Assembly: GCF_026914185.1 (NCBI RefSeq)
Contig: NC_070561.1
Location: 5,828,001 to 5,892,000 of the forward strand
Direction: 5' to 3'
DNA: 64,000 nucleotides
Source of the DNA: Puccinia triticina
Lineage: Eukaryota > Basidiomycota > Pucciniomycetes > Pucciniales > Pucciniaceae
Below, piece after piece: positions 7,659 to 60,108 of the stretch (within the stretch, counting starts at the first letter, position 1; the number at the start of each line of letters is the position of its first letter). A model generated the notes under the pieces. The model ran no database searches and was not told where the DNA came from. It worked only from the letters and a program-made list of their open reading frames with translations. A program made the translations under genes and the position numbers.

Positions 7659-8501
7659 TGTCAGCCTTAGAGTCAACACAGCTGACCTAAAGTCTGCCTC
7701 TTTTCTACTTATTACATATGAAATTACCTCATATCTTTTTCATCTTAAGAGATATCATTGTTTTGACTTCATTTTCTGTTTCCTCATGCAATTTTAACCC
7801 TAGTTACAACTTAACAATTCTTTGTAACTATACTCCTTCCCTGAGTTCTTGAGTTGTGGCGCACATGCGCAGTTGTGACGTGTCAGCGCTACCAGGCGCG
7901 CCAAACCACATGTACATATGTAATTACATAAGCAAACTGTGAAAATTTGCAAAGTCAGGATCCCCCTTGCCTGAGGAGGATCTACAGACTTCAGCCCACC
8001 AGAACCACACCCCAGATAACCCAGGATCACCACCAAGGAGATTACCACACTCCCAGTATACCTACTGTCACAGGCACCTAGGATATTGACAGTAAGTAAA
8101 CTCTTTCTCTGAACCTTGCTTATCCAAAGTGAAACTCTGTAGCTCTTGATTGTTTCTTCTTTTCTTCAACTCTTTCAATCTTAAAAGATCAAAAGGTTAT
8201 CTCTGGTTAAGACCTACAAAACCAGAGCAGAGTAGTAACCCTACTTCTGAATCCCAACAACGTTTCCTTGTTGTGAGTGGAGGCTGTTGCACTCTTTCTT
8301 GGCCTTGCACAGCTGGCATCCAACTTTTCCAGGTTGAGAATAGCCCAGATCAATTAATTAAGACTTAAAGTCTAGGCCTGATCTTCTCTTTCTCTCTTTC
8401 TTTCTTCTCTCTCTGTTTGTATTTCTTTATCCCAAGAAATCCAACCAGAGTCTCCCCATTTTCCTTGTGTCCTGTTGTCACACAAGAGACACAGGCTCAC
8501 A
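7659..8501 (+). repeat. 3' LTR of the Ty3 element (843 bp)
   Basis: The LTR starts TGTCAGCC just after a purine-rich tract and ends GGCTCACA. It matches the solo LTRs at 21283-22462 and, in reverse, 55656-57584. Pyrimidine-rich stretches (8388-8416) and a CTCAGG/CCTGAGG-containing segment lie inside. The following five bases are GCTGA. Confidence 0.9.
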
Positions 8502-10452: not shown

Positions 10453-13400
10453 CACTACCAAGATGGATGAATTTGCGATGTCGTATATTGATCAATATAG
10501 CGTATATTGATCAATTTATATTGATCAACTTTTTTTTATTCCTCTTGATACCTTTTTCTGTGTTCCATGTCTCCTTAATACTCTTCTATAATCTATCTCC
10601 TTCCCCTGTATTTGCTTCAAGCCACAGGAATCTTTTTTTTTGTCTGATAACATTCATAAATTTATACATAGACCATTCAATTCTACATGGAAAAATACAC
10701 TGCAAGGTTTAGGATTAATCCAGAGTGGCTGAGGGGGATCAATTCTTTTTTCTTGTTTTTTTTACTTCAACAATTGATGTTATCAGAAGTCTCCAAATCT
10801 ACTTTTTTTCAAAAAAGGAATAACATTGACCCCTGACCTCTATCAGTATCATGATACAATCCTGCACACATTGCTAATTTGGTTGGTTGAACTTCCTGAA
10901 GATATTGCACATCATACTTGAAGTGCTACATGCATAGAAGGCCTTTTTGGAACTAGTTTACCATGGTTTAGCATATTTTTGTCAGGTTTTTTTTTTTGTC
11001 AACTTTTGTTGTCAACCACAGATTAATGAGGAATATTTCCACATAAAATTTCATCGGACAATTTTTCTGCATAAAAAACCCAGAAATATTGTGTTTGGGG
11101 TCACATCCATTATGCAGCAGCTACAGTCTGGTCTGTTCGCAAATATCACTACTTTGGTAGTTTCTTGGTGTTTCTGCCACTATATCTCATCCCAGCGTGA
11201 AAATCCTTCTGCCATATGGTTACCAAAATGTTAGCAGACCCCCAAAGATTCATTATGTACCTTCAGTCACCACAAAACCCCCAAATGTAGCAGCTACAGT
11301 CTGATCAGTTCCCAAATAGCACTACTTTGGTAGTTTCCTTGTGTTTCTGCCACTATATCTCATCCCAGCGTGGGAATCCTTCTGACATATGGTTACCAAA
11401 ATGTTGAGAGGCCCACAAGGCTTCACTATGTACCTTCAGTCACCACAAAACCCCCAAATGTAGCAGCTACAGTCTGATCAGTTCCCAAATAGCACTACTT
11501 TGGTAGTTTCCTTGTGTTTCTGCCACTATATCTCATCCCAGCGTGGGAATCCTTCTGACATATGGTTACCAAAATGTTGAGAGGCCCACAAGGCTTCATT
11601 ATGTACCTTTACTGACCACAAAACGTCCAAATGTAGCAGCTACAATCTGATCAGTTCCCAAATATCACTACTTTGGCAGTTTCTTGGTGTTTCTGCCACT
11701 ATATCTCATCCCAGCATGGGAATACTTATGCCATATGGTTACAAAAAGGTACATAATGAATCTTTGGGGGCTTTTTAACATTTTGGTAACCATATGACAG
11801 AATTATTCCCACGCTGGGATGAGATATAGTGGCAGAAACACCAGGAAACTACCAAAGTAGTCATATTTGCGAACTGGTCAGACTGTAGCTGCTACATTTG
11901 GGGGTTTTGTGGTGACTAAAGGTACATAATGAATTATTGGGGGCCTGTCAAAATCTTGATAACCATATGGCAGAAGGATTCCCACGCTGGGATGAGATAT
12001 AGTGGCAGAAACACCAAGAAACTACCAAAGCAGTGATATTTGGGAACTGATCAGACTGTAGCTGCTGCATTTGGAGTTTTTGTCGTCAGTAAAGGTATAT
12101 AATGAATCTTCAGGGCCTCTCAACATTTTGGTAACCATATGGCAGAAGGATTCCCACGCTGGGCAGAGATATAGTGGCAGAAACACCAAGAAACTACCAA
12201 AGTAGTGATATTTGGGAACTGATCAGACTGTAGCTGCTACATTTGGAGGTTTTGTGGTCAGTCAAGGTATGTAATGAATGTTTGGAGGCTTTTAAACATT
12301 TTGGTAACCATATGGCAGAAGTATTCCTACGCTGGGATGAGATATAGTTGCAGAAACACCAAGAAACTACCAAAGTAGTGATTTTGGGAACTGATCAGAC
12401 TGTGGCTGCTACATTTGGGGGTTTTGTGGTCAGTCAAGGTAAATAATGAGCCTTTGGGGGCCTGTAAACATTTTGGTAACCATATGGCAGAAGGATTTCC
12501 ACGCTGGGATAAGATATAGTGAGAAAAACCAAGAAACTACCAAAGTAGTAATACTTGGGAACTGATCAGACTGTAGCTGCTACATTTGGGGGTTTTGTGG
12601 GGACTAAAGGTACATAATGAATGTTTGGGGGTCTGCCAACATTTTGATAACCATATGGCAGAAGGATTCCCATGCTGGGATGGGATATAGTGGCAGAAAC
12701 ACCAAGAAACTACCATAGTAGGGATACTTGCAAACTGATCAGACTTTAGCTGCTACATTTGGAGGTCTTGTGGTCAGTAAAGGTACATAATGAATCTTTG
12801 GTGGCCTCTAAACATTTTGGTAACCATATGGCAGAAGGATGCCCCTACTGGGATGAGATATAGTGGCAGAAACACCAAGAAACTACCAAAGTAGTGATAT
12901 TTGGGAACTGATCAGACTGTAGCTGCTACATTTGGCGTTCTTGTGGTGACTTAAGGTCCATAATGAATCCTTGGGGGCCCGTAAACATTTTGGTAACCAT
13001 ATGGCAGAAGGATTCCCACACTGGGATGAGATATAGTGGCAGAAACACCAAGAAACTACCAAAGTAGTGATATTTGTGAACTGATCAGACTGTAGCTGCT
13101 ACATTTGGCGGTTTTGTGGTGAGTAAAGGTACACAAAGAATGTTTGGGGGCATTTAAACATTTTGATAACCATATGGCAGAAGAATTCCCACACTGTGAT
13201 GAGATATAGTGGCAGAAACACCAAGAAACTACAAAAGTAGTGATATTTGCCAACTGATCAGATTGTAGCTGCTGCATAATGCATGTGTCCCGAAACACAA
13301 TATCTCTGGGTTTTATATGCAGAACAATTTTTGGATGAAATTTTATGTTGAAATATTCCTCATTAATCTGTGGGTGATAACAAAAGTAGACAAAACAAAG

Positions 13401-13925
13401 AACCCAACAAAAATATGCTAAACCATGGTAAACTAATTTCAAAAAGGCCTTCTGTGCATGTAGCACCTCAAGTATGATGTGCAATATCTTCAAGAAGTTC
13501 AACCAACCAAATTAACAATGTTTGCAGGATGGTATCATGAGAGAGGTCAGGGGTCACTGTTTTTCCTTTTTTGAAAAAAAGTAGATTTGGAGACTTCTGA
13601 AAACATCAATTGTTGAAGTAAAAAAGAAAAAGAAAAAAAATTTGAGACCCCTCAGCCACCCTGGATTAATCCTAAAACTTGCGATGTCTTTTTTTCATGA
13701 AGAATCAAATGGTGTATGTAGAAATTTATGAATGTTATCAGGCAAAAAAAAAAAAAAAAATCCTGTGGCTTGAAGCTAACACAGGGGGAAGGAGAGAGAT
13801 TTTAGAAGACTATTAAGGAGACATGCAACACAGAAAAAGGTATCAAGAGGAATAAAAAAAAAAATGATCAATATCCGCTATATTGATCAATATACGACAT
13901 TGCAAATTCATCCATCTTGGTAGTG
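10453..13925. mobile_element. Foldback transposon with CACTA termini and 3-bp ATT target duplication
   Basis: Both ends carry the same inverted sequence starting CACTACCAAGATGGATGAAT, near-identical for about 50 bp, and the flanks show ATT at 10450-10452 and 13926-13928. CACTA ends with a 3-bp duplication are the signature of the CACTA (EnSpm/CMC) superfamily. Inverted arms extend about 650 bp from each end. The centre is filled with 173-bp repeats pointing in opposite directions either side of about 11745. No transposase is present, so it must be non-autonomous. It sits inside the copia RT: the protein resumes as NATFAPTATF straight after the element. A longer relative occupies 44981-50612. 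Confidence 0.85.
11105..13275. repeat. 173-bp tandem repeats in two head-to-head arrays
   Basis: The landmark CATCCCAGCG recurs at 11188, 11361, 11534 and 11707, a spacing of exactly 173. From about 11746 the same unit appears reverse-complemented for roughly nine further copies. Recurring blocks are CATATGGTTACCAAAATGTT, CCCCCAAATGTAGCAGCTAC and CTGATCAGTTCCCAAATA. Open frames here are by-products of the repeat and not genes. Confidence 0.88.
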
Positions 13926-18377: not shown

Positions 18378-20810
18378 TCATAACCAGCGTTGGATAGTGT
18401 TATAGTTAAGTATGGAGAATTGGGCGGGGATAACAAGCAAAGAAGTATTATGAAAACGCATGCAACTTTGAAATATTTCACAATGGAGAACATTAACAAC
18501 ACCATTCCTCTCTGTAGGCTTTGCAATTAACAAATTAGCCACGCTCAATACACGTGAGAGAGCAACATATAATTGCCCATGTGAAAACACATTGGTACTC
18601 AAAAAAACACCCACACGGTTAAATGTTTGTCCTTGGGCCTTGTTGATAGACATTGCGTACGCTGGAGTAGTTGGGAACCAATACCTGAAAAAACTTAAGC
18701 CTGACCGCGGCGAACCTTTGTTGTCTAATTTGACGCAAGGTAACATTATTGTTTGCCCTTTGAAGGGACTAGTCATAAGTTGACCTTGAATATAAACATG
18801 GGAGAATCCTAGAATGAGCATTTGGGTTCCATTACAAATGCCCCCATTTATGTTCATGTTTTGTGTTGCAACAACGGGCATGCCGACCTTCAGAGCAATT
18901 CTATGCTCAGTTAATCCTGGAATTGAGATCCGTCGGGGTCAGGCGTATCAATTGACATGAGTTCAATTGCTTCGCCAGGTAAAGTTTTCATTATCTCCTT
19001 GTTTACTTGCTTCACATCTTGATTCAAAGGGGCAAGAATGCAACGTTGATTTAAGTAGTGTACAAGTTCAGAAGTGTGGGTACAATCAAATGTTGGCATA
19101 TCGTGATCATATAAAAATTCCACGAGCCGCAAGCTCATCTCCCGTGTGGTCAAATATGAATTCATCTGCATGCCGTCAAGGGGTAGAATACTGAAATCAT
19201 TTGCCTGGTCCTTACCTTTGCCTAAGCAAAGGAGCGCCCAAGCAAAAATGCGGTTGTTTTCAGTGGCTTCCCCCTTTAACGCAGCTGCAAGCCGCATGTT
19301 CTGGTGAAGCTTGAATTCAATAACTTGTGTCCACAACAAAGATGATCTGAGGGTCGCTGCATACAATGGAGAAAACTGGTTGTATTTAACCACTGGTAGG
19401 GTTTAGCGGAAATCCCCCAAGAAGATGACGGTCTTTCCTCCAAAGGGCTGAGGAAAATTAGCCAAGCGTTGAAGTTTTTGGTCAACGGCATCAATACAAT
19501 TCTTATGGATTGTTACGACTTTGTCCCAAATGATGAGTTTTGCAGCAACTAATTTCTGAGCAAATGCGGAATCAGAATCAATGGGGCATTCAACATTCAC
19601 TTCTGTATCAATTGGGATCTTGAAAGCATAGTGCGCCGTTTGCCCAAATTTGAGCAGCAAGGCCGCGACACCTGATGAGGCAGTAATGACCTGAGGAATT
19701 CTCTTAGTCAAAGCAAGGTCTATAATTGAGTTCAAGACAAAAGTTTTGCCCGTCCCCCAAGGCCTGTTGAGATAGAAAATTTGTGGAAAATTCCTTGTCA
19801 ATGACTTTTGGACCTGGTTGAAAAATTCTAACTGGGCGGTATTGAAGATCGCTTTGTTTCCGCAGAGGCGGGAATAAATTGCAGAAAGATCTTCATTGCC
19901 GCTTTGTTTGTGTTCAAGTCTTGCTAAAGATTGCCTGTCAGATCGGCTGATATTTATGCCGCAGGTTTCTAAGTTGCTACCCATTTTGCAGAGAATGGCG
20001 TCCAATCAAAATAATGCAAGCACACGTCTTTTTTGGGGCCTGAGAGGCCGGCTAGAGCGGCTTTGCATGTCAAGGCAAGGTGAATCATCTGTGAACAACT
20101 CAAAGTGTTGTTCAAATAGCTTCTTGGGATCTGAAGGAGGCGAATGGATACACATCATGGCATACATTTCAGCCAGTTGATAGCCAGTTTGGGCTGCGGC
20201 AGATTCAAGGACAGTTTGATCATAGAGATAATCATCAACAAGTAACCCAAGCCAATTACATGCAATTTGGTATGTGTTTGCCCACCGTCCTTTGACTGTG
20301 CGCAGTTCTTTGTGTGAGCAAGAGCCTTTGCGATGAAAAAGAAGAACCCGCAGATGGAACTTTTTGCCAGCAAGAAATGAAACGGAATACATTCTGCCAA
20401 GGGCTTCAGACTTTGTTTTGCATGGGAGCCGGGCTTTTTTGCCTTTGAGCCACCAAAAATAGGTCAGGATCTCTTCATACAGTAATTTGCGGGCTTCCTG
20501 GCCTTTGGCTCCAATTGAATTCTTTTGGTTAAGCCAGAAGTAACCGATTAGGTTTGTTTGGGACGCTTTGCCGGATTTAATTTGACCTTCCGCACCTTTG
20601 TTGGAGTCAAAATAGACAAGTTGTTTTCCCGCATCGTGGATTGCGAGTCGAGTTACTGCGGGTGATCGGTCGGAAAGTGGAAACCTGAATAATCTCCAAC
20701 AAGCTGGGTGGAAGTCAGATTGAGTGCCACATGAAGAAAGAGGAGAGTTTGTGACATACCTTCTGGAGTACTTATGTAACAAGCATCAATATAGGCCTGG
20801 ACCTCATTTG
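18378..20810 (-). pseudogene. Helitron helicase (Pif1-like) domain
   Basis: This is the C-terminal half of a Helitron RepHel protein, the DNA-unwinding part of a rolling-circle transposase. On - the order is NEVQAYIDACYIS, the N-terminal helicase region (EQHFELFTDD), then Walker A as RPWGTGKTFVLN near 19760 (usual GPGGTGKTF, one Gly lost). Walker B is IIWDKVVTIHK (usual Glu replaced by Lys), followed by TVIFLGDFR, FKLHQNMRL, NGGICNGTQ, and AYAMSINKAQGQTF with HGQLYVALSRV. Motif order matches Pif1/RecD-type Helitron helicases. Frame breaks occur near 20006, 19400 and 18900, and the altered Walker residues suggest loss of activity. A solo LTR separates it from the Rep part. Confidence 0.9.
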
Positions 20811-21282: not shown

Positions 21283-22462
21283 TGTTAGCGTTAGAGTCAA
21301 CACAGCTGACCTAAAGTCTGCCTCTTTTCTACTTATTACATATGAAATTACTTCATATCCTTTTCATCTGAAGAGATAGCATTGTTTTGACTTCATATTC
21401 TGTTTCCTCATGCAATTTTAACCCTAGTTACAACCTACCAATTCTTTTTAACTATACTCCTTCCCTGAGTTCTTGAGTTGTGGCGCGCATGCGCAGTTGT
21501 GACGTGTCAGCGCTAACAGGCGCGCCAAACCACATGTACATATGTAATTACATAAGCAAACTGTATAAATTTTTGGAGTCAGGATCCCCCTTGCCTGAGG
21601 AGGATCTACAGACATCAGCACACCAGAACCACACCCCAGATAACCCAGGATCACCACCAAAGAGAACACCACACTCCCAGTATTCCTACCGTCACAGGCG
21701 CCTAGGATATTGACAGTAAGTAAAATCTTTCACTGAAACTTGCTTATCCAGAGTGAAACTCTGTTTCTCTTGATTGTTTCTTCACTTCTTCAACTCTTTC
21801 AATCATAAAAGATCAAAAGGTTATCTCTGTGTAAACCCCCCTCCTCCCTTGGGGTTCACAAGGAGTCACAGATGACTCCCACATGTCACATAGTCAGATA
21901 TAGCCTGGTTCAATTCCTTCCCTGGTTCAGCAGAGAACTGACTAGCAGTCTCTCTGAACCAGGTAAGTCTCTTTCTTTCTTCTCTTGTGTTTCTCTCTTC
22001 TCATCCTTCTAGTAGAGAGAACTGACTAGCAGTTTCTCTGAACCAGTGCAATTCAAACTCCCCCCTTTGTTTGGTCCTAGAATTCATCTTCAGTGCCCTT
22101 CAAGCGCTCCTCTCCGGTTCATCTGTCTCAACCAGTGAAGGGGATTCTCACCCCTTACACTCTGGTTAAGACCTATAAAACCAGAGCAGAGTAGTAACCC
22201 TACTTCTGAATCGCACCAACGTTTCCTTGTTGTGAGTGGAGGCTGTTGCACTCTTTTTGGCCTGGCACAGCTGGCATTCAACTTTTCCAGGTTAAGAATA
22301 GCCCAGATCAATTTATAAAGACTTAAAGTCTAGGCCTGATCTTCTTTTTCTCTCTCTTTCTCTTCCTCTCTCTCAGTTTGTATTTCTTTATCCCAAGAAA
22401 TCCAAACTATTCCTCCTTCATTTCCTTGTGTCCTGCTGTCACATAAGAGACACAGGCTCACA
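21283..22462 (+). mobile_element. Solo LTR of the first Ty3 family, itself carrying a nested LTR
   Basis: The sequence matches the 843-bp LTR at 7659-8501 from TGTTAGCGTTAGAGTC to GGCTCACA, and is flanked by ATTGC at 21278-21282 and 22463-22467. The excess length comes from a 330-bp insertion at 21830-22159 plus its duplication. It interrupts the Helitron Rep gene just upstream of the tyrosine motif. Confidence 0.93.
21830..22159 (+). mobile_element. Nested 330-bp solo LTR (TGTAA...TTACA type), CTCTG duplication
   Basis: TGTAAACCCC...CCCTTACA is flanked by CTCTG at 21825-21829 and 22160-22164; removing it restores the outer LTR. Inside, a hairpin (21922-21962) is followed by GTAAGT, a pyrimidine-rich run and TCTAG at 22012. 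A second, shorter copy of the hairpin then follows (22013-22046). The same layout occurs in the LTRs at 51958, 54815 and 59788. Confidence 0.9.
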
Positions 22463-29566: not shown

Positions 29567-29768
29567 TGTTAAGGTCTGTTCTGTGGAGAGGAAGATGGGG
29601 TCTAGGTTCTGGGGTTCTGGGGGTTCTGGATCCAGGATGGTAGATTGCAGGATGAGGAAGAGGCTTGGGTCTCCAGCCTCTTGAACCTTGAGTATGGTCT
29701 GTGACATGTACGTGTAGTCTATGTACATGTGAGTCTGCGCTGCGGAGCCCGCACTACGGCTCATAACA
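29567..29768 (-). repeat. 3' LTR of the chromovirus (202 bp)
   Basis: On -, TGTTATGAGCC...CCTTAACA. It differs from the partner at 35125-35326 at only a small number of positions. A GGGTTCTGGGGGTTCTGG microrepeat (+ strand) lies inside. Confidence 0.92.
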
Positions 29769-29900
29769 TTATCCCCCCTTTAATGCCCAAGCCACCCCCT
29801 TTTCTGGTTGGTCAATGAGAAAAAAAAAATCCTCCTCTTTTGGCTCTGCATTCTGTCCCCGGGCAGCATTAAAAAACCCAGTGGGAAAAAGCTTGCCCTC

Positions 29901-32900
29901 TCACTTTCTTCTCCGCGTCCTCTGATGCCTGGCCGCCGCCTCCGGAAATTTTGAGTTAAACTCCGCCAATAGGTCTCCGCTGTTCTTCAAGTTCGCCTCT
30001 GGCTCCCAAGAATTTTCCGCCGGTCCAAATCCGCGCCAGCTGACAAGGTATTGAGTCGTCCGCCCTCTCCGCTGGCTGTCCAGTATTCCGTCAACCTCCC
30101 ACTCATCTCCGCCGTTGACTGTTACTGGCTCCGGGGTCCGCCGCTGTCGGTGGGCAATCTTGTTGGGCTTGTGTTTGCGGAGTACTGACACGTAGAAAAC
30201 TGGGTGGAATCCCTGCATGGAAAGCGGAAGGGTCAGTTTGTAAGCGGAGGTTGAAATTCTGCTAGCTATTGGGAATGGTCCAAGCCAGCGGTGTTCCAAT
30301 TTGGGGCTGGGGTGTGTTGTCGAGATATTGCACCCATCTAGCCAAACCTTGTCTCCACTGTTCCATTCCGGTGTTTTCCGCACTCCGCAGTCAAACTGGC
30401 TTTTCATGGCCTCCTGCGCCGCTTCTAGACAGTGCTTCAGTTTGTCCTGTACCTCCGCAAGCTGGCGAAGTCGCTCTGCCACTGCCGGTACACACTGTCC
30501 CGCCAATGGAATTCCGCTGTACAATGGGTTGAAACCGTAATTTGCCTTAAATGGTGACACCCCTGTTGACGTGTGATTGTTGTTGTTGTAAGCAAATTCC
30601 GCCGTTGCCAGGAGCGGAGCCCAATCGTCCTGTCAATAGCTCACAAAATGGCGGAGATATTGCTTCACTGCTTTGTTTGCGATTTCAGACTGTCCGTCTG
30701 TCCTTGGATGGTACGCCGTAGATGGTTGGAGGCGGATGCCAAGTCTGTTGTCCAATTCCTGGGTGATTTAGGATACGAAAATGCTCTCTCGGTTGGAAAC
30801 AATAGTCTTCAGAGTGCCGTGGAGTTTCCAAACGTGCTCCGCCATCAGGTCCGCTAACTGCTCCGCATTCATGGACTTCCTGCAGGGGATAAAGTGTGCC
30901 ATCTTTTTCAGACAGTCAACAACAGTCAGTATGCTGTCGTGGGAGCGGGATTCAGGTAGGTCTGTGATGAGGTCATAGCTGATGTCCGTCCACGGCCCCG
31001 CCGGAATTGGCAGCGGCTCCAGTGTCCCAAATGGCTGTTGCGTTGAGGCTTTAACTCTTTGACAAGAATCACATCCATCCACGTATTGGTTGACAAACTT
31101 CTTCTGGCCGTTCCACACAAAACTCCGTTGGACCAGGGCAAGGGTGCGGGATCGGCCTGGGTGGCCCACCGCTTTGGTGTCGTGTCGGCTCTTCAGGATC
31201 TTGGTCCGCAGTGCTGGGTCCGCCGGTACCACTATCCGCCCTTTGTTTTACAAGATGCCATCAGTCTCCGTGTATCTGTTCCAGTTACCTGTGGGGGTTT
31301 TCAAGGATTCTATCCATCCGGTCAGTTGGGCATTGAGTGGGGTCAATTCTCTGATTCTTGCAATGATCTCCGCATCAGCCATTGCCACTCCATTTTCCGC
31401 TCCATGCTCCGCGTCTATCCCCAGTACGTCTACCTAAAACCAGTGCTCCGCCTCCGCCAAGTCAATTGATTCGTCCTCAAACCAGGATTCAAACTCCAAT
31501 ATCTCTGCAAAAGTCCGCTCCGTGATGTTATTGGGCTTCAGCAGCTGTCCAAAGGTCAGTTTTTCACCAGGGGCGGGGGCTAGGTGTGGTCTTCTTGAGA
31601 GGGAATCGGGTTTGGTGGCTTGGCGGCCCGGGCGGAAGATGATTTCAAAATCAAAGCAACCCATGGTCTCCGCCCACCGCGCCTGTCTCCAAGTGAGCTC
31701 ATTGGTGGTCATGAAGCTTTCTAGGTTCCGGTGGTCCGTGTAAACAATGGCGGTCAGGCGGTGCGGGTTTCCTTCCAGGTGCTGCCGCCACTCTTTGAAA
31801 GCGGCAACAATGGCCAATAGTTCCTTGTCAAAGATCTCGTAGTTCTTCTCCTCCTGCACCAATGATCGGGATAGGTAAACAACGGGGTGGAGTTCTTTGT
31901 CTTTGTTGCAGACTTGAGACAAGACTGCTCCAAGCGCGAAGTCAGAGCAGTCACATTCCAGGATAAACGGCTTGTACGGGTCCGCAATCTTAAGTATTGG
32001 AGCGGAGGTGAAGGCGGTCTTTAGGCATTTGAAAGCGGAGTTACATTGGTCGTCCCAGACAAAGGGGGTTTTTGCTTTGGTCAGGTCGTGTAGAGGTCTG
32101 GTCTTCCCCGAGAAGTGGTCAATGAACCGGCGGTAAAAGTTGGAGAATCCGATGAACCGCTGAAGTTCTGTAACGTTACGCGGTGCGGGCCACTCCGTCA
32201 CCGCCTTCACTTTTGCGGGGTCCATTCTAATCCGGTTACACGCAATTAAGAGTCCAAGATATTCCACCTCCGGTTTCGAAAATTCACATTTCTCCGGTTT
32301 CAGCCATAATTGATTCTTGCTCAGGGTCTCCAGGATTCTGTTGACCGCTGCCGTGTGATCGGAGCCTTTCTGTGTGTATACCATAATGTCATCCAGGTAT
32401 GCGGCGGTTTCCTTTCCAATTCGTCCAAGGAGAATGTCCTGCATGAAGTATTGAAAGTATCCCAGCGCTCCTGTGGGTCCAAACGGCATGGTGAGCGGAG
32501 CGAATTGTCCCGCCTTGCAGATGAACGCTAGCTTATCCTCATCTCCCTCCGCCACTCGGAGGTTTCGGTAGGCGTTGCGAAGGTCCAGCTTTGTGAAGGT
32601 GTCGGCGTCTAGCAGGCTTTCAACCAGGTCCATGGTCAGCGAAAGGGGGTAGCGGTTCTTCACTGTCAGTGCGTTGAGTTTTCGGTAGTCAAAACAGGGG
32701 CAAAGGTTTCCGTCCTTCTTTCCGGTGAATAGAACTGGGGCCGCCCATGGTGACGTGGTCCGCCAGATTGTTCCGCTGGCCAGTCCTTCCGCAATCGGTG
32801 TGTCGAGTGCCTGGTTCTCCGCCGGTGAAAGCGGAATGATTTGGCTTGCTTGTGGTGTGGCTCTGGGGACTAGGTCAACACAGAAGTCATACTTTCTTTG

Positions 32901-33971
32901 TGGCGGTAGGCTCTTAGCGCTGTATTTCCGGAACATGTCAATGAATCGATGGTAGCTTTGCGGGACAAGTTCCTCAACGGTCCGTGTTGCAATAGCGGCC
33001 TTTCCCGCCGCTGTTAGCCGGGCGGAGGTCGACCACGATGTCTTGGCGGTGCTAATCTCTGCAGTGTACAGTTCTAGGAGAGAAAGGGGCTTGCCAGCTG
33101 CTTTGGAAAATGATTGCAGAGAAACTTTATTGGACTCACATTGCGGGGGCGGTAAAATACACACCCCCTTGTCACAAATCCTAGCTTTCCCCATCATGGG
33201 CCCTTGGCCCTCTGTTGAGGATGTTTGCGGAGTGGACGATACCGCCAAAGCGGCAGCAAAATTGTTGGCGGGGTTGGCGGGGTTCCATTCCAGCTGCGGG
33301 GGGGCGGGATTCCAGTCGGGGTGCGGAGTACTTTTTACAGGGAGAAAAAGCTTGCCAGCCGTTTCAGGGAGTATGGAAGAGGGTATTCTAACAAACTCAC
33401 ATTGCAGGGGCGGTAAAACACACACACGCTTGTCACAAATCCTAGCTTTCCCCATCATGGGCCCTTGGCCCTCTGTTGAGGATGTTTTTGGAGGGGACGA
33501 AGCTGCGGAGGCAGCTGCACTGTTGGAGTGGTTGGAGCGGAGTGTGCGGGTGGTCCAGTCAATTTGGTGTCCGTGTTTGTGGATCCATGGCATCCCAAGG
33601 ATGCCTTTGTACGTGTCCTTCAGTCGGGTGATGATGAATTTTGAAGGGCGGGGTTCTTCATTCAGGGTCAGGTCAATCTCATATGCCGCTCGGGATGTGG
33701 ATCCATCGACTCCCAACACTGTCCGCCTTGAGGCAGTGGTGTTGCGGAGTAATCCCGCCGCGGCGGCATAGGACTTGCTCAACACATCATGGGTTGCTCC
33801 GGAATCAATCAACAAGGAGGCAGGGGGTAAGGGGTTCAGGGGTGTGGCTCTGGGAGTTGTGATGGTGCAAGAGATGAAACATCTGGGATCAATTTCATTT
33901 CTGGTTAAAGTTTGACTAGCACCAATACCACAAGACAACTCCGCCGCGCTCAGGAAAGGCACAACCTTCAT
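29901..33971 (-). pseudogene. pol: Chromovirus pol: protease, RT, RNase H, integrase, chromodomain
   Basis: One frame runs from ATG 33971 to 29901 (1357 codons) with about four nonsense codons (near 31435, 31250, 30768 and 30635) and no frameshift. Protease LLIDSGATHDVLS lies near residue 55. RT has KLDLRNAYRNLRVAEGDE, LTMPFGPTGALGYFQ and AYLDDIMVYT. RNase H has FILECDCSDFALGAVLSQ and YTDHRNLESF. Integrase has HPGRSRTLALVQRSF...CDSCQR, DISYDLITDLP and HPRTDGQSEIANK. The chromodomain is EWEVDGILDS..TTQYLVSWRGFGPAENSWEP. The first Asn in IVSNRESIF replaces the usual second catalytic Asp of integrase. Its ATG overlaps the gag stop as ATGA. A duplicated segment lies between protease and RT (33160-33490). 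Confidence 0.93.
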
Positions 33972-34954
33972 TCCTGAGCACCTCCATTTTTTGACAAGTT
34001 GGCCCGGCCTTTTCCGCCTTTATCCGCTGGTCCGCCTCCGCCTATTGTTGCCATCCCTTCCACTAATTGTTGGATCTGATCCTCCATTGCCGCAATCTTG
34101 GCGTTTCCGCGGCCTTTCTCCTTCTTGGTCTGACAGTCGCAGGAGATGTGGCCCTGCGCTCCGCATCTGAAACAGAGTCCTTCCCGCATCATCCGGGCCT
34201 TCTTGGAGTTGGATAGTCGTCCATATAACGCCAATAGGTCCATGGCGTCGGGGTCGATCTTCTGTTTAGCCAGCGCTGTTCCGGCCTCCGCTCCGCTCAT
34301 CGCCGTGTCAAGCTCCAGGGCCAAGGTAGCAACCTCATTAACGGGTGTGAATGCGGTGCGGGAAACGATGAGCGCCATCTGGATGTCCCGCTTCAGACCT
34401 TGGCGGTACTGGCTGAGGAGGGTGGGGATTTCCCATCCCGCTGCGGAGGCGTGCTGGACGAAGATGTGGGTGTAGTCTGCCACAGAACCGGTCTGATTCA
34501 GCGCTCAGAGGGCTCATTCCGCCTTTGCCTTCTTTTCCGGGTTGAAAAACATGCCCCGGAAGGCCGCCGTGAACTCCGCCTAGGTCGGGGTGGGTGGTTC
34601 CACTGCTGCCTGGTCAAGGAACGGGGCTGCCCACACGCGCGCGGGTCCAGTCATGTACGAGGACACAAAAAGGATTCGTGTTGTGTCGGTTGGGAACAAG
34701 TGCTTGTTCACAGCTATATAGATGCCAACCTGGCGGGCAAACGTCTCCGCCACCGCTCCGCGTTCTCCATTGAACTTGTTGGGTTGAGCGATCTTGGGGG
34801 TCTTGGTTGCGGTTGGGGGGGGGGGTGGATTTGGAGTGCGGAGTGCGTCCTCCAACTTGACCTCGGCCTGGCGGCGTTTTTCCTCCTTGTTGTTGGCCTT
34901 CTTAGTAATGTCCGCCAGTTGTTGTTGGAGTTTGGCGGCTTCGGAGCCATCCAT
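33968..34954 (-). pseudogene. gag: Chromovirus Gag with zinc knuckle
   Basis: From ATG 34954 (MDGSEAAKLQQQLADITKKA) one frame continues to the TGA at 33968. A coiled-coil N-terminus (KEEKRRQAEVKLEDAL) and Pro-rich linker come first. The capsid region follows (FNGERGAVAETFARQVGIYI, PARVWAAPFL), then LSQYRQGLKRDIQMALIV and the CCHC-type knuckle CFRCGAQGHISCDC. Internal stops near 34580 and 34500-34520 are TAG/TGA codons at places where Trp or Arg is expected. The open frame extends upstream into the LTR, but the Met at 34954 precedes the first protein-like sequence. Confidence 0.85.
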
Positions 34955-35124
34955 CGTATTGCTGTGTGATGTCGGAGCAGGATATTCAAGGTTTCTAGGA
35001 GTGGATTGCGGGATATTCAAGGTTTTGGAGTCGGGATGTTCAAGGTTTTGGAGTCGGAGCGATCTGGTTCTTGTTGGTCTGTTGGGTTCTTGGTCTTCGT
35101 CTACGTTAAGTAGATCCTGCAATA

Positions 35125-35326
35125 TGTTAAGGTCTGTTCTGTGGAAAGGAAGATGGGGTCTGGGTTCTGGGGTTCTGGGGGTTCTGGATCCAAGATGGTA
35201 GATTGTAGGATGAGGAAGAGGCTTGGATCTCCAGCCTCTCAAACCTTGAGTATGGTCCATGACATGTACATGTAGTCTATGTACATGTGAGTCTGCGCTG
35301 CGGAGCCAGCGCTACGGCTCATAACA
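35125..35326 (-). repeat. 5' LTR of the chromovirus (202 bp)
   Basis: Direct repeat of 29567-29768, followed on + by CTCAT. Transcription of the element would start here, toward lower coordinates. Confidence 0.92.
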
Positions 35327-42199: not shown

Positions 42200-42935
42200 A
42201 GGTTGTAGGGTCCCTCTTGATGACCAGTCAATCAGCCACCAAGAGGTTATAAGGTCCTTCTTGATGACCGGGTTGACCGTTCATCAAGAAGATATAAGGT
42301 CCCTCTTGATGACTGGTCAACCGGTCATCAAGAAGGTATAAGGTCTCTCTTGATGCCCTGTAAACCAGTCATCAATAAGGTATAAGGTCCCTCTTGATGA
42401 ACAGTCAACAGGCCATCAAGAGGGTATAATTCTTGATGACCCGTCAACTGGCCATTGTGAGGGTATAAGGTCCCTCTCAATGACTGGTTGACCAGTCATC
42501 AAGAGGGTGAGAGGGTGTAGAACTCTTCTCAATGAACAGTCAACCTGAAATTGAGAAGGTATAAGGTCCCCCTCAATGACCGGTCAACTGGAAGTTGAGA
42601 AGGTATAAGGTCCCTCTCAATGACCATTCAACCGGTCATCAAGAACATATAAGGTCCCTCTCAATGACCGGTCAACCAGCCATCAAGAGGGTATAGGGTC
42701 CCTCTTGATGACCAGCCAAATGGCCATTGAGAGGGTATAAGGTCCTTCTTGATGACCGGTCAACCGGCCATTGAGAGGGTGTAGAGCCCCCCTTGATGAC
42801 CGGTCAACCAGTCATTGAGAGGGTATAAGATCCTTCTCAATCACCGGTTGACTTGTAATTAAGAGGGTGTAGAACTCCTCTTGATGACCAGTTAACTGGT
42901 CATTGAGAGGGTGTAGAACTATTCTCAATGAACGG
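42200..42935. repeat. ~44-bp minisatellite with a palindromic GACCGGTC core
   Basis: Some 16-17 units of the form TATAAGGTCCCTCTTGATGA followed by CCGGTCAACCGGTCATCAAG lie in tandem; one clean spacing is 44 bp. Each unit contains TTGATGACCGGT...ACCGGTCATCAA, an inverted repeat able to form a hairpin. Open frames across it are by-products. Confidence 0.8.
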
Positions 42936-51474: not shown

Positions 51475-51957
51475 ATGGTCAAGATCAAGTCGCCAAACAA
51501 GCGGCTATGCTTTAATGGGACCAAGGTTGAAAGTTTCATCAATACCTACAAGATGGTGGCGGGTTTGGACAAAGCAATGAAGCTGGACATGACAGGCTCA
51601 GCAGATCAGGCTGTTTCTTGCAAACAACAAGTTGCTTAACATCCTCAAGACTTTGAAGGGATTCAGTCCCCTGGATTGCCCAAATATCAAGGCGGCCATG
51701 ATTGACTACTGGGGACAGGTGGACACTGCAAGGTTCACAACGTGGGATCTGACATCCTTGGTTCAGGATTGGGCGACAAAGGCCGGGGTGGCTTTGGCTG
51801 TGGAATATCAGGCGTTTGGGCAGTCGTGGGAGCCAATCCAGTCTTATCTTCTCTCTAAAGATCACATCAATTTGGTGGAGGAGATCCAAAACTCTTATTA
51901 TCAATCTCTCTTGCTCACTGTTCAGGAGAAGATCAGAAAAAAACTGATTTGCAATGG
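51475..51957 (+). pseudogene. Ty3-type Gag, first of three pieces
   Basis: From ATG 51475 (MVKIKSPNKRLCFNGTKVES) the frame gives a capsid-like start and then shifts near 51632. It continues as LNILKTLKGFSPLDC, MIDYWGQVDTARFTTWDLTS, WEPIQSYLLSKDHINLVEE and KIRKKLICNG, a helical Gag pattern with conserved Trp residues. The reading is cut at the AATGG where the non-autonomous LTR element inserted. It resumes at 55145. No pol of this element is visible. Confidence 0.75.
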
Positions 51958-52287
51958 TGTAAGCCCACTCCTTTGGGGTCTCACAAAGCTTTCACAAAGA
52001 GTATCACAGACTCTAGTATTTAGCCCATGCCTCCTTCCACATCCTAGCCGGTAGAGATCTTGCCCTCTACATCTCTCCCGGCTAGGTAAGCCTTCTTCCT
52101 TTTCCTCCTTTCTCCCTTGTTTCTAGTTTTACTGACCAGAGAGATCTTGCCCTCTACATCTCTCCTGGCTAGCCCTTCTGCAATCCAAAGCCCCACCGTT
52201 TGGAACTAGAAGCTCAAAAGGCTCCGGCCTCGTCCCACTGGCCCGCTTTCCTCATTGTCTCCAGTGAGGGTCCACCAGACCCTTACA
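51958..52287 (+). repeat. Left LTR of the non-autonomous element
   Basis: 330 bp. A hairpin at 52045-52085 (TAGCCGGTAGAGAT / ATCTCTCCCGGCTA) is followed by GTAAGC at 52086 and TCTAG ending at 52126. A second hairpin-like copy then follows. Differs from the right LTR at few positions. Confidence 0.93.
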
Positions 52288-52656
52288 CTTTTTTTTTCTT
52301 GTTCCAAACACCTCTGAATTGTTGAATCTGCTCAACTTCACATCCTTTTTGGTCAATTGTGACCCTTGAGCTCCACATTTCTCTTTTGCACTCGTATCCC
52401 GGCCGCCGTCTATCATCAGACTCTTGGACTCAACCTCGTTCCCTTGTTGCTCCCCACGCACCCTCAGCGCTTGCCACGGATCTAAGACCGCCACTCAAGG
52501 ACCCTTGACCCTAGCAACCAACCCAGAGAGCCCCTTTGCCCGCAAACCTCGCAACCGCCAAAAGGCCTCCCCGCCCTCAAACCCCGCAAACGGCCCATAA
52601 GGCCCCTTGCCCTTGAACCTTGTAGCTGGCCCACAAGGCCCCTTGCCCTTCGCCCT

Positions 52657-53181
52657 TTGATCCTCGCAAACAGCCTCAACGGCCCCTTTGTCCCCCAAAC
52701 TCCCTGTTTTCCTTACCATTCTGCCCGCCCGCCTTATCTCTTTTGTTCTGTTCCGAATACGCTCTGCCCAGTCTCAACAAACGTGTTCCCTCAATCTCCA
52801 CCACCATTGCATCACATCAACTGGCGGCAAATTCAACATGAAGCAATCACAGTGTTCTTCTTCCTTGGCGGGTCAATGGGGTCCCCCTGGAAAGAAAGAT
52901 CTTGCTTCAACGGGCTTGTTAGCCATACAACAACTGGAAACTACAAAGCCCGCATCCAGCATCTGGAGGGTGTTGTGCGCCTCCTGTTAACTAGAACGGA
53001 GTCTGCCTCGCCCCATCCAACAACTGGAAACTACAAAGCCCGCATCAAGCATCTGGAGGGCGTCCTGCGCCTCCTGTTAACTATAACGGAGTCTGCCTCG
53101 CCGGGCCTTGCCCCTTTGGCTCCCCTGGTCACATCGTTCCGGTACTTGACAAAGCAAGGCCTTGAACCAGTACTGGCCTGA
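52657..53181 (+). pseudogene. Internal ORF with duplicated 28-residue unit
   Basis: A 174-codon frame in the non-autonomous LTR element. Its middle holds two tandem copies of a helical unit, TTGNYKARIQHLEGVVRLLL and TTGNYKARIKHLEGVLRLLL, encoded by an ~85-bp DNA duplication (52927-53015 and 53019-53102). The N-terminal part is Pro/Ser/Phe-rich. The start codon is doubtful, because frames upstream are open but unlike protein. No family is recognised. The duplicated residues differ mostly conservatively, suggesting past coding. Confidence 0.4.
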
Positions 53182-53222
53182 AGGACGGCAGCCTTGCTAT
53201 TCTCGCCCTGGCCTCTCCCTCC

Positions 53223-54190
53223 TTGTGCAACTGTGCACCCCCTAAGCTCTGGAACTACCCAGCCACCAAGGTCGCCGAAGCCATCAACCTCCCGCACTAC
53301 CAGGCGATCTCCATTGCCTTCCAGCCCTGTACAGACTGCAACTCTGACGCTGAGCACTTTGTGCTCAGAGAACTCCGTATCAACGACCTTGCCCCCACCA
53401 TCTGCAACCTCCTCCTTGGCTCCTTGTCTCTACCAACCCTTAAGATCAACGCCTCCACCAAGCAGCTCCCATCAACCCCACCTTCTCCGCTCGCCTCCGC
53501 AGCCGCGCCCTGCACCTCCAGCACCGGCCAAAGCCTCCAACCACCCGGCGCCTGCTTGTCACCGCCACCAACACCCTCCCGTCCCTCCATCTCCACGCTA
53601 GCACAATCTGAGCATCCTACCTGCTCAGCCAGCTTTGCAACAACCTGCGCGCAGCCCCTCCGGCCGCCGAACTCCTTGTTTTAACCCTTGCCTTTGTCAA
53701 GGTACTCATTGCCCTTGCCCAGCTCCCTGGCTTTAAGCAGGCTTTCTCGGCCCTTGTTACCACCCCCATCAACATCCTCATTGGCACCATCTGCGCAATC
53801 TGGTTTACTTTCCCGCTCAATGTCCTCACCGCCTCCAGCATCCACAACCGGGCCCACCTGCCAACCTTCTGGCCTTGACTCATCACACCCATGTCCTTGA
53901 CGCCGAACTAGACTTCTCATCAATCCCAGCTCCACACCTCCAAAACCCAAGCCCGCCCTTGCCAAACGGTTATCTTCTGTCTCTACCCCTAGCTCGCCAA
54001 ACCGCATGGCTACCTGCTCACCGCCTTTGGCCCATCCGCCGCCTACCGTATCGCCCTTGCCAATTTTGCCTTGCTCTTTATCTTCTCCGCCACAATCCGC
54101 TCCATCACCCAAGTCGCCCCCTATCTCTCCAAAAATACCGTCTCCGTCCCCAGCTCCAACTTCCTCAAAATCTTCATTGACACTGTCTAA
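53223..54190 (+). pseudogene. Membrane-protein-like coding fragments carried by the LTR element
   Basis: Across two or three frames on + a protein-like sequence can be followed: LCNCAPPKLWNYPATKVAEA, INDLAPTICNLLLGSL, LHLQHRPKPPTTRRLLVTAT, and ASYLLSQLCNNLRAAPPAAE. Hydrophobic segments follow: LLVLTLAFVKVLIALAQL, NILIGTICAIWFTFPLNVL and, later, RIALANFALLFIFSATIRSI. Three likely transmembrane helices in order suggest a former integral membrane protein, not a retroelement protein. It could be a captured host gene or an unusual element gene. Frameshifts near 53465 and 53880 and stops near 53610 and 53877 are visible. No family is recognised. Confidence 0.45.
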
Positions 54191-54199
54191 CCATCGGGC

Positions 54200-54622
54200 T
54201 TGCTGAGCCTGTCAGATGTCAACTCACAAGACGCACCACCTTCGCCTCGCCCTGCTTACTCCCCTTTGTTGCCCGCTCCTTCTCAAACTATTTATCTAGA
54301 AACAGTTGCCGCGGGAGGCATATCCATAGTGGATGATAATGATAATTCACCAGTTGGAATTGAAACATCTGAAGACGCATGGACAACCCGCTTCTACAAG
54401 GACAACATCACTGAGTATCTCAAACTCCTCAAAGAGTATAATGCTGATGAGTTATGCTATGAAGAAGCCAACGAAGAAATGTTGAAATTTTGCGCTTCAG
54501 ACATCCCCACTTCCCCACCTGCTGGTACCACAAACACTTCAAAGAAAAAAAAGAAGAAGAAGAAGAAGAAGTCACCTAACCCAACTTCAACTCCTGACAA
54601 CCCAGTTTTATTTTATCTTTGA
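54200..54622 (+). CDS. ORF with acidic helical part and poly-Lys tract
   Basis: A 140-codon frame at the 3' end of the non-autonomous LTR element. After a Pro-rich start it reads WTTRFYKDNITEYLKLLKEY and ADELCYEEANEEMLKFCASD (acidic, helical). Ten or so Lys then come from an AAG/AAA run at 54540-54575, and the frame ends with TAA 54620-54622. No domain is recognised. A CCTCAA repeat follows directly. Confidence 0.35.
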   Translation: MLSLSDVNSQDAPPSPRPAYSPLLPAPSQTIYLETVAAGGISIVDDNDNSPVGIETSEDAWTTRFYKDNITEYLKLLKEYNADELCYEEANEEMLKFCASDIPTSPPAGTTNTSKKKKKKKKKKSPNPTSTPDNPVLFYL

Positions 54623-54654
54623 TTCCATCATCCTCTGTCCCCCACACCTACCCC

Positions 54655-54745
54655 ACTACCAACCTTGCCCTTGACCTTGCCCTCAACCTCAGCCTTGACC
54701 TTGATCTCAACTTTAGCCTCAACCTCAACCTCAACCTCAACTCTT
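54655..54745 (+). repeat. CCTCAA/CCTTGA hexamer repeat
   Basis: Some 13-14 degenerate hexamers (CCTTGC, CCTTGA, CCTCAA). In frame they give alternating Leu with Asn/Asp/Ser. Immediately downstream of the ORF and upstream of the polypurine tract. Confidence 0.75.
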
Positions 54746-54814
54746 GCCTCCCTTCCCTATCTTCAGTTATGATTCCCCCTCTCTTAAGCTCTTTTCTTTT
54801 ATAGGAGGGGAGAG

Positions 54815-55144
54815 TGTAAGCCCCCTATTTTGGGGTCTCACAAAGCTTTCACAAAGAGTATCACAGACTCTAGTATTTAGCCCACGCCTCCTTCCACATC
54901 CTAGCCGGTAGAGATCTTGCCCTCTACATCTCTCCCGGCTAGGTAAGCCTTCTTCCTTTTCCTCCTTTCTCCCTTGTTTCTAGTTGTACTGACCAGAGAG
55001 ATCTTGCCCTCTACATCTCTCCTGGCTAGCCCTTCTGCAATCCAAAGCCCCACCGTTTGGAACTAGAAGCTCAAAAGGCTCCGGCCTTGTCCCACTCACC
55101 CGCTTTCCTCATTGTCTCCAGTGAGGGTCCACCAGACCCTTACA
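54815..55144 (+). repeat. Right LTR of the non-autonomous element
   Basis: Direct repeat of 51958-52287. GTAAGC at 54943 and TAG ending at 54983 mark the intron-like segment between two hairpin copies. AATGG follows. Confidence 0.93.
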
Positions 55145-55655
55145 AATGGAACCATGGTGACCACTCTGGACAACTAGTTTAAGTTGCCAACCTTTCAAAT
55201 CCTCAAGGACGCCATGGAAGCCGTGAAGAAGGAACAAACCTCGCTCACCTTCAAAGAGTCAAAGACCGGGAAGACGGTCACCATTGCTACCCCCTCTCAG
55301 GATGGAAACACTGTGATGAAGAAAATGGGCAAGGATTGGTGTCCAAAGGACAATGCTGCTCCTGCAGCTCCGGCAACAACCATAGACAATCTGTCAAGGA
55401 TGTTGGAGGCTTTCAAAAATAAGATTGACAAGAACATTGCGGCCATACCCGGGAAAGCTTTGACACTAGCAGATTGCCCGGCCCTGGTTTGTTACTATTT
55501 TCATTGCAAAAATCACGGGACTTCCCGGTGTCAGGAGCTAGTCAAAGATAAGGAAGCAGGGCTTGTTGAACAAAGAGGTACCAATTTTTTTCCTTCCCAA
55601 GGGGGCACTGATCCTGTCTGATTGTAGCAGGCCAATTTGACATGTTGTGCCTTCC
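55145..55655 (+). pseudogene. Ty3-type Gag, second piece, with degenerate zinc knuckle
   Basis: The Gag resumes as NGTMVTTLDN, a TAG (55175-55177), then FKLPTFQILKDAMEAVKKEQ, LTFKESKTGKTVTIATPS and TIDNLSRMLEAFKNKIDKN. The knuckle reads CYYFHCKNHGTSRC, where the second Cys of CxxC is Phe, so zinc binding is probably lost. It runs on as LVEQRGTNFFPSQGG to a stop and then toward the CTTCC where the solo LTR inserted. Relation to the first and third pieces is shown by sense continuity across both insertions. Confidence 0.75.
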
Positions 55656-59090: not shown

Positions 59091-59094
59091 CCGT

Positions 59095-59345
59095 GGGTCA
59101 GCTACGCTAACCATAGCTGTCAGCGTAGCGCAGCGCTGCGCAAATGTGCTATTTTTTAGTGTAGTGTTAGTGCACTTGCGCACATTGGCGCTAATGCTAC
59201 GAGCACAGGGTGCAAAGCTATTCTAGGTTTTAGTTTAGCATTAGCGCAGATACGCTCAATTGCACTAACACCGCAAAAGAGAGCGCGCTACGCTGCGCTA
59301 AAGCGCTTTTGGCGGCAAGAAAGACGTTTTTTTTGCCAAAATAGC
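59095..59345. repeat. GCGCTA-rich segment related to the hAT-like element
   Basis: Dense GCTACGC, GCGCTAA and GCGCTTTTGGCG words resemble the interior of 23937-24574. Terminal repeats could not be fixed, so this may be a fragment. Confidence 0.5.
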
Positions 59346-59787: not shown

Positions 59788-60108
59788 TGTAAACCCCCCT
59801 CCTCCTCTGGGGTTCACAAGGTGTCACCAATGGACACCTGCCCTGTCACAGACTTGTAGATAGCCCGTTCCTCCTCCTTCCTTGGCTCAGCAGAGAACTG
59901 ACATGCAGTCTCTCTGAGCCAGGTAAGCTCCCTTCCTTTTGTCTCTCTTCTTTCCTTCTTCTTCCTCTCAGGCAGAGAACTGACATGCAGTCTCTCTGAG
60001 CCAGTCCTAGCAATCAAAGCCCCCTGAGTTTGGTCCTAGAACTCCTCCTCCGCGCCCGTGCCATCGCTCCTCCGTCTCCAGCTCCAGTGAAGGGATTCAA
60101 CCCTTACA
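59788..60108 (+). mobile_element. 321-bp solo LTR (TGTAA...TTACA type), GGCCA duplication
   Basis: TGTAAACCCC...CCCTTACA is flanked by GGCCA at 59783-59787 and 60109-60113. It sits inside the OTU domain, just before ANTFETVVFF. The twin-hairpin layout is present: first copy 59882-59922, GTAAGC at 59923, CTCAG ending 59971, second copy 59972-60004. Confidence 0.93.

What the first reader, a model, noticed from the sequence alone, without database searches (positions are those of the whole stretch)
21830..22159. Twin hairpins around a 41-50 nt intron-like segment conserved in a group of small LTRs
Seen: LTRs at 21830-22159, 51958-52287, 54815-55144 and 59788-60108 all read TGTAA...TTACA. Each holds a hairpin ending directly at GTAAGY, then a pyrimidine-rich run, then TAG or CAG, then a second copy of the hairpin sequence. 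The intron-like parts are 21963-22012 (50 nt), 52086-52126 (41), 54943-54983 (41) and 59923-59971 (49). The hairpin sequences differ between subfamilies (CAGAGAACTG...CAGTCTCTCTG versus TAGCCGGTAGAGAT...ATCTCTCCCGGCTA), but the layout is kept, which suggests selection on structure. Known: tandem duplication of an AGGT-containing unit is one proposed way to create introns. Inference: these LTRs may carry a built-in intron, or a splice switch that lets them be removed or exonised when they land in genes.
Basis: partly seen in the sequence, partly recalled or inferred. Interest (0 to 1): 0.78.

Follow-up and report, generated by a model that had tools for sequence, protein, structure and literature searches.

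The report
Jumping genes rebuilding their own intron
Many small jumping genes in this fungal genome carry an intron-like segment inside their end repeats, and the pattern of copying scars suggests that the segment is cut out of the RNA and then put back each time the element copies itself.

Summary
The layout is real. In 83 of 89 related loci fetched from the same genome, a 26-33 nt unit ends exactly at a GTAAG-like donor and is repeated with its end 64-93 nt downstream. The second copy lacks the hairpin's outer 5' arm. The copies change together between subfamilies: 52 of 88 identical, 81 of 88 with at most two differences. In near-identical LTRs of different elements the 4 nt left of copy 2 vary about 25 times more than the rest, while the two LTRs of one element agree there (8 of 8 pairs). 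A TATA-like core lies about 31 nt before copy 1, not before copy 2. Five further sequence families show the same design. Best explanation: the unit is exon 1, from transcription start to splice donor. The RNA is spliced from GTAAG to the CAG/TAG ending copy 2 (median 83 nt). Strong-stop DNA carrying exon 1 then jumps onto copy 2 in the unspliced 3' LTR and remakes the intron each cycle. Layout and scars are shown; start site, splicing and jump are inferred, without RNA data.

The parts
21830..22159 (+). solo LTR, subfamily A, inside the repeat 21283-22462; target repeats CTCTG at 21825-21829 and 22160-22164
   Evidence: the other copy of that repeat, 7659-8501, is uninterrupted
21899..21903 (+). 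TATA-like core (TATAG); its TAG starts 31 nt before unit 1
21922..21930 (+). outer 5' arm of hairpin 1, upstream of the proposed transcription start
21932..21962 (+). unit 1 = proposed exon 1 (31 nt, ends CAG|GTAAGT)
21963..22046 (+). proposed intron, 84 nt, GTAAGT to the CAG that ends unit 2
   Evidence: inferred, no RNA data
22012..22015 (+). joint, the 4 nt left of unit 2, variable between elements
22016..22046 (+). unit 2 (copy of exon 1)
51958..55144 (+). two-LTR element of 3.2 kb, target repeats AATGG at 51953-51957 and 55145-55149; its two ORFs of 150 aa or more have no Pfam match
51958..52287 (+). 5' LTR, subfamily C
52053..52085 (+). unit 1 (33 nt), followed by GTAAGC
52086..52172 (+). 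proposed intron, 87 nt
52140..52172 (+). unit 2
52288..52299 (+). conserved C-T9-CT directly after the 5' LTR (place of the primer-binding site)
54801..54813 (+). polypurine tract next to the 3' LTR
54815..55144 (+). 3' LTR, subfamily C
54910..54942 (+). unit 1
54943..55029 (+). proposed intron, 87 nt, with unit 2 at 54997-55029
59788..60108 (+). solo LTR, subfamily B, target repeats GGCCA at 59783-59787 and 60109-60113
59892..59922 (+). unit 1
59923..60004 (+). proposed intron, 82 nt, with unit 2 at 59974-60004

Best explanation
[quoted passage not shown] Unit 1 is exon 1: it runs from the transcription start (AGAGA) to the donor (YAG|GTAAG). The intron runs from GTAAG to the YAG that ends unit 2, about 83 nt. 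At the 5' end of the genomic RNA the intron is spliced out, so the RNA begins with exon 1 joined to the sequence after unit 2. Reverse transcription makes minus-strand strong-stop DNA ending in exon 1. This DNA anneals to unit 2 in the unspliced 3' LTR part of an RNA and is extended through the intron, exon 1 and U3. The new LTR again has exon 1, intron and exon 1, and unit 2 has been overwritten by a fresh copy of exon 1, with a few odd bases at the joint. The outer stem of hairpin 1, whose 5' arm lies before the start site and so exists only in 3' LTR RNA, may hide the donor there and keep that copy unspliced. Shown: layout, concerted units, joint shared within elements and often different between them, one-sided TATA-like core, outer arm before unit 1 only, several families. 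Inferred: start site, splicing, the strand jump, the role of the stem.
For: (1) Twin layout in 83 of 89 loci (a few loci are one place found by two queries); 79 exact-pattern twin matches of A/B genome-wide, two of them in one three-unit copy. (2) Units vary in concert: 52 of 88 identical, 17 different unit sequences each found as both copies of one LTR; among 29 pairs from a pattern with a free loop 21 identical, shuffled mean 2.7, maximum 9 (from the 89 of 202 matches that one search printed). (3) Joint: 56 pairs of near-identical LTRs of different elements differ at 0.192 per nt in the 4 nt left of unit 2, 0 left of unit 1, 0.0078 elsewhere (profile). With one LTR for each of 8 subfamily B elements, 22 of 28 pairs differ there. 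The two LTRs of one element agree there in 8 of 8 pairs, all with matching target repeats, despite 42 other differences; 2 of the 8 are of subfamily C2, which does not vary there anyway. (4) TATA-like core 26-43 nt before unit 1 in 78 of 88 (61 at exactly 31), before unit 2 in 1 of 88. (5) The last 9 nt of unit 1 pair 8-9 of 9 with sequence before the unit in 74 of 88; those of unit 2 in 1 of 88; shuffled mean 6.45. (6) CTGA, the start of a yUnAy branch-point match (rule recalled), in 82 of 89 printed A/B units although the pattern left it free. (7) Same design in five more sequence families. Upstream repeats follow 8 of 38 AGGTAAG sites (5 of these 8 are A/B/C relatives) and 6 of 59 AGGTGAG sites (one, L043, set aside), against 512 of 35873 other AG sites. 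One such LTR belongs to a broken element with a Pfam RNase H domain, taken as Ty3/gypsy. Another family has 45 twins among 59 donor sites, and its 10 inferred two-LTR elements have equal spacing in both LTRs.
Against: No RNA evidence of any kind. The joint is not always new: four of the 8 near-identical B elements share one joint, and in subfamily C2 all 13 pairs (4 elements) agree; L051 and L058 of C2 have the same joint too, only L055 differs. Folding gives only weak support for donor hiding: in 77 A/B/C copies YAG is more open when the RNA starts at unit 1 (0.15 to 0.39 unpaired) but GTAAG hardly changes (0.35 to 0.39), and in the 11 other instances (3 of them A/B/C relatives) the 8-nt site does not change (0.21, 0.21). 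In A/B, other AGs lie between CTGA and the proposed acceptor. Single-unit copies (7) and one three-unit copy (L084) also fit plain recombination. Donor and YAG counts are partly set by the search patterns.
Confidence: 0.68

Rival explanations
1. Transcription starts at unit 2. The pyrimidine run is a promoter CT-block, R begins at unit 2, and unit 1 is only a U3 copy. The variable joint is the ordinary U3/R joint; no splicing is needed.
For: Explains the variable joint at unit 2 and its agreement within elements with textbook strand transfer; the run upstream is 79% pyrimidine.
Against: Unit 1 would be inherited through U3 and unit 2 through the RNA 5' end, so they should drift apart; they are identical in 52 of 88. 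The TATA-like core sits before unit 1 in 78 of 88 and before unit 2 in 1 of 88. It gives no reason for a donor motif exactly at the end of unit 1, in several families.
Confidence: 0.15
2. An old tandem duplication kept alike by template switching or gene conversion between the two repeats; the donor-like motif is incidental or used only now and then.
For: One-unit (7) and three-unit (1) copies exist, as expected from unequal exchange between direct repeats.
Against: Does not predict that the joint left of unit 2 is the variable spot, that the repeated unit ends exactly at a splice donor and begins about 31 nt after a TATA-like core, or that several families share this.
Confidence: 0.1
3. One reading: a 41-50 nt intron ending just before unit 2, giving a spliced RNA with two units, and a switch for exonising LTRs in genes.
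For: AG often precedes unit 2.
Against: 0 genome matches to the corresponding A/B junction; no branch-point A in the subfamily B copy of the window; strand transfer of such an RNA would add a unit each cycle, but three units were seen once (L084).
Confidence: 0.04
4. Chance or assembly artefact.
For: None found.
Against: The same layout recurs in LTRs on many contigs and both strands, with target repeats and two-LTR elements.
Confidence: 0.01

Closest known systems
Foamy virus major splice donor in the R region (PMC3694450; abstract and section 11 read)
   Same: A donor inside the LTR, upstream of the poly(A) signal; the RNA fold differs between 5' LTR RNA (from +1) and 3' LTR RNA (with upstream bases), which presumably blocks U1 at the 3' LTR.
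   Different: There the acceptors lie far downstream and spliced RNAs are subgenomic (recalled). Here the whole intron lies in the LTR, exon 1 is repeated at its end, and the spliced RNA is proposed as the template for the new LTR.
TRIM and other small non-autonomous LTR retrotransposons, incl. Helenus of rust fungi (PMC10886601; abstract, section 12 and found passages read)
   Same: Short, LTRs, PBS place and PPT, 5-bp target repeats, many solo LTRs, rust genomes.
   Different: Helenus LTRs hold a tRNA-like sequence; ARAGORN found no tRNA gene in this window. By the coordinates most two-LTR members here are about 2-4 kb, longer than the <1 kb given for TRIMs in that paper.
Ty3/gypsy-type element of the same genome (L011, minus strand)
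   Same: TTACA LTR end, C-T9-CT after the LTR, twin units around GTAAG.
   Different: Carries RNase H (Pfam) and reverse transcriptase-like pieces, broken; the RT-like piece had no Pfam match and its naming is recalled from motifs.
Introns born by tandem duplication of an AGGT unit, and introners (recalled)
   Same: AG|GT at the end of the first repeat, AG at the end of the second.
   Different: Here the repeat appears to be renewed with retrotransposition and lies in the LTR, not in host genes.

Membership tests
LTR retrotransposon | long terminal direct repeats with short terminal inverted repeats and a fixed target duplication | tested here: met
   TGTAA...TTACA; 5-bp target repeats at the three insertions in the window and at 8 two-LTR elements
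LTR retrotransposon | polypurine tract before the 3' LTR and a primer-binding site after the 5' LTR | tested here: inconclusive
   purine tract ending AGGAGGGGAGAC/G before 16 of 16 listed 3' LTRs; after the 5' LTR stands a C-T run-CT, not matched to a tRNA (the listing was selected by these ends)
autonomous Ty3/gypsy element | encodes gag-pol | tested here: not met
   no Pfam match to the two ORFs of 150 aa or more in 52288-54814; a relative, L011, has an RNase H domain
Helenus (tRNA-bearing TRIM) | tRNA-like sequence in the LTR | tested here: not met
   no tRNA gene found by ARAGORN in the window; a decayed tRNA-like piece could escape it
spliceosomal intron | donor, pyrimidine run, branch point, acceptor | tested here: met
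   GTAAG/GTGAG in 83 of 88, 79% pyrimidine, CTGA in 82 of 89 printed A/B units, YAG at the end of unit 2 in 87 of 88. The search pattern imposed YAG and a partial donor at unit 1 in 77 of 88 and AG with a full donor in the other 11. The branch point is a motif match, not tested
spliceosomal intron | it is spliced | not testable with these tools
   no RNA reads available
hammerhead retrozyme or other Rfam RNA | match to a family | tested here: not met
   six matches, none at gathering score, for 51800-60300; only that stretch searched

The most novel reading that the evidence does not exclude
A mode of LTR-element replication in which the spliced RNA is the normal template: an intron inside R is removed from the 5' end and restored at every cycle, because exon 1 is repeated at the intron's end and serves as the landing site for strong-stop DNA. 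It is used by several LTR families of this fungus, including a Ty3/gypsy-type lineage and a family of about 5 kb elements with TGTTG-type LTRs.
Probability: 0.5. Interest if true: 0.88.

Novelty: new variant of a known kind. Interest (0 to 1): 0.74.

Why it matters
Introns are expected to be lost when an element copies itself through spliced RNA; this would be a way to keep one inside the very repeat that reverse transcription rebuilds. It could let an element use splicing for export, translation or suppression of early polyadenylation without losing the intron, and it would mark genome copies with a scar that links or separates insertion events. It also gives a concrete mechanism for an exon-intron-exon repeat that is renewed rather than born once. 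Existing RNA reads could test it at once.

Tried and rejected
Known RNA families near the LTRs: six weak matches in 51800-60300, none at gathering score. Protein domains in two ORFs of the 51958-55144 element: none. Short-intron loss: 0 matches for A/B. Single-unit copies as proof of splicing: rejected as proof, since unequal LTR recombination gives the same product. Of 19 pattern matches, 11 I judged by position to be unit 2 of twins, one is L025, and 7 were fetched; of these 7, 5 are single-unit (L091-L094, L096), L090 is a twin with a mutated unit 1, and L095 has only the right half. The other two of the 7 single-unit copies are L025 and L050. Hairpin hiding the donor: tested by folding, weak. 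Of 17 extra scan hits, two are partner LTRs of family C, L019, L041, L043 and L072 were set aside as tandem repeats or poor donors, and 11 were kept; 3 of the 11 (L016, L054, L074) are A/B/C relatives. For L003 no LTR ends were established. Rows dropped before the counts of 88: L008, L037, L064, L065, L080 (judged duplicates or partners) and L084 (three units). Loci without a twin, 6 of 89: L023, L025, L046, L050, L059, L085.

Papers: full-text searches for an intron inside an LTR, or for spliced RNA with strand transfer in LTR elements, listed nothing that by title and abstract describes this. Beyond listings I saw the parts named for PMC3694450 and PMC10886601, and the abstract and section 9 of PMC6885630.

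Data limits: counts of genome copies are lower bounds (tool statement). Copies are related, so per-pair rates are descriptive, not tests. Which LTRs belong to one element is my judgement from distance; the 8 pairs used were checked by target repeats.

Full report
What is there. The window lies in a 122.8 Mb genome of 18 contigs. From size and contig number I take it for a rust fungus, probably Puccinia triticina; this is recalled and inferred, not tested. Two of them are the ends of one 3.2 kb element, two are solo LTRs, and each of the three insertions has a 5-bp target repeat. One solo LTR lies in a repeat whose other copy, at 7659-8501, is the empty site.

The repeated unit. DNA searches with three of the LTRs brought 89 loci. 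In 83 of 89 a unit ending at a donor-like site recurs downstream; the other six are truncated or have one unit. Among 67 copies with both LTR ends the unit is 31 nt in 44, 32 in 9, 33 in 12 and 26 in 2. For the counts that follow I used 88 instances: 77 of these A, B and C copies after dropping duplicates, and 11 found by scanning flanks. Copy 1 is followed by GTAAG or GTGAG in 83 of 88; copy 2 by GT in 2 of 88, never by GTAAG or GTGAG. The patterns used to find the instances impose part of this. Copy 2 stops short of the outer 5' arm: the last 9 nt of unit 1 pair 8-9 of 9 with sequence before the unit in 74 of 88, those of unit 2 in 1 of 88. The outer stem of A and B keeps pairing through a double change (T-A in 22, C-G in 28 of 52 rows), with a few breaks.

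The two units change together. Of 88 instances 52 have identical units and 81 differ by two bases or fewer; 17 different unit sequences occur as both copies of one LTR; 48 of 53 kinds of difference are private to one element. A pattern with a free loop matched 202 times; from the 89 matches printed I could form 29 pairs, 21 identical against 2.7 expected after shuffling. CTGA is kept in 82 of these 89 units although other loop bases vary.

The scar. I compared LTRs of different elements that are otherwise nearly identical: 56 pairs from 19 LTR copies. The 4 nt directly left of unit 2 carry 43 differences (0.192 per nt), the 4 nt left of unit 1 none, the rest 0.0078 per nt; along the LTR this is the highest 4-nt bin (43, next 21). 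With one LTR for each of 8 subfamily B elements, 22 of 28 pairs differ there. The two LTRs of one element agree there in 8 of 8 pairs, each checked by its target repeat. Reverse transcription makes both LTRs of an element from one strong-stop product (textbook), so this looks like the place where each new element was joined. Against: four of the 8 B elements share one joint, and in subfamily C2 all 13 pairs agree. In 30 of 51 A/B instances a G stands directly left of unit 2, where unit 1 has C or T in 50 of 51; in C it is 9 of 26. One extra base opposite the cap was the main outcome when a reverse transcriptase switched off a capped RNA in vitro (PMC6885630, section 9), so the G would fit; an AG acceptor would give it too, so it is suggestive only.

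Why splicing. If the joint is at unit 2, the RNA 5' end must read unit, then the sequence after unit 2. Either transcription starts at unit 2, or it starts at unit 1 and the stretch from GTAAG through unit 2 is gone. The second fits the TATA-like core before unit 1 (61 of 88 at exactly 31 nt, 78 of 88 within 26-43; 1 of 88 before unit 2), the donor motif, the acceptor-like YAG at the end of unit 2 (87 of 88), and above all the likeness of the units, since unit 2 would be a fresh copy of exon 1. If unspliced RNA were used, a third unit would be added each cycle; one three-unit copy was seen (L084). The proposed intron has median 83 nt (64-119).

Generality. I scanned 175 flank stretches (262.5 kb) and the window with the four LTRs masked. 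A repeat of the upstream 20 nt follows 8 of 38 AGGTAAG, 6 of 59 AGGTGAG and 1 of 19 AGGTATG sites, against 23 of 2061 other AGGT, 512 of 35873 other AG and 0 of 177 YGTAAG sites. Five of the 8 AGGTAAG hits are A, B or C LTRs in flanks, and one AGGTGAG hit (L043) and the AGGTATG hit (L041) look like plain tandem repeats. The remaining 8 instances form five sequence families (L003; L011; L015 with two in L076; L037 with L048; L042). L011 is the 5' LTR of a broken element with the same LTR end, the same C-T9-CT and an RNase H domain. L003 was not shown to be an LTR. The L015/L076 family appears to start TGTTGAGG. An exact piece of its donor occurs 59 times, 45 of them with the second unit at the set distance. 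Ten same-strand pairs 4.8-5.0 kb apart, taken as two-LTR elements, have the same spacing in both members but four different spacings between pairs.

The hairpin. Its 5' arm lies before the proposed start, so the full stem exists only in RNA that runs through U3, i.e. at the 3' LTR. Foamy viruses use this kind of difference, presumably to hide a donor at the 3' LTR (PMC3694450). Folding supports it weakly in A/B/C and not in the other 11 instances. With both units present, one window copy folds with the outer arm of unit 1 on unit 2 instead, another with two hairpins. I treat this part as a guess.

What is not shown. There are no RNA data. Start site, splicing and strand jump are inferred from DNA.

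Novelty. Full-text searches listed no account of an intron inside R renewed by strand transfer; the library misses most subscription papers. I rate it a new variant of LTR retrotransposon, interesting because it can be checked with existing reads.

Noticed in passing
window 10849-13580 and 45326-50145: Two large blocks of 173-bp tandem repeats, with inverted arms within and between the blocks.
   Followed up: no
window 52288-52299 and loci L015, L019, L031, L035, L043, L052, L053, L064, L067, L068, L087, L088: The sequence after the 5' LTR is C, a run of T (5 to 9) and soon CT; an unusual primer-binding site, not matched to a tRNA.
   Followed up: partly
window 7659-8501 and 21283-22462: A repeat pair, 86-97% alike in pieces, the second interrupted by the solo LTR 21830-22159; possibly the LTRs of a Ty1/copia-like element between them.
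   Followed up: partly
window 42222-42928: Tandem array with 44-bp period.
   Followed up: no
window 18378-20782, minus strand: Broken ORFs that look like a PIF1-type helicase (motif recalled).
   Followed up: no
window 29567-35326, minus strand: Ty3/gypsy-like ORFs (recalled motifs) between 202-bp repeats 94% alike; the scan found no twin units there.
   Followed up: partly
window 52923-53102: 90-bp tandem duplication inside the small element.
   Followed up: no
L084: LTR with three units and two GTAAG donors.
   Followed up: partly
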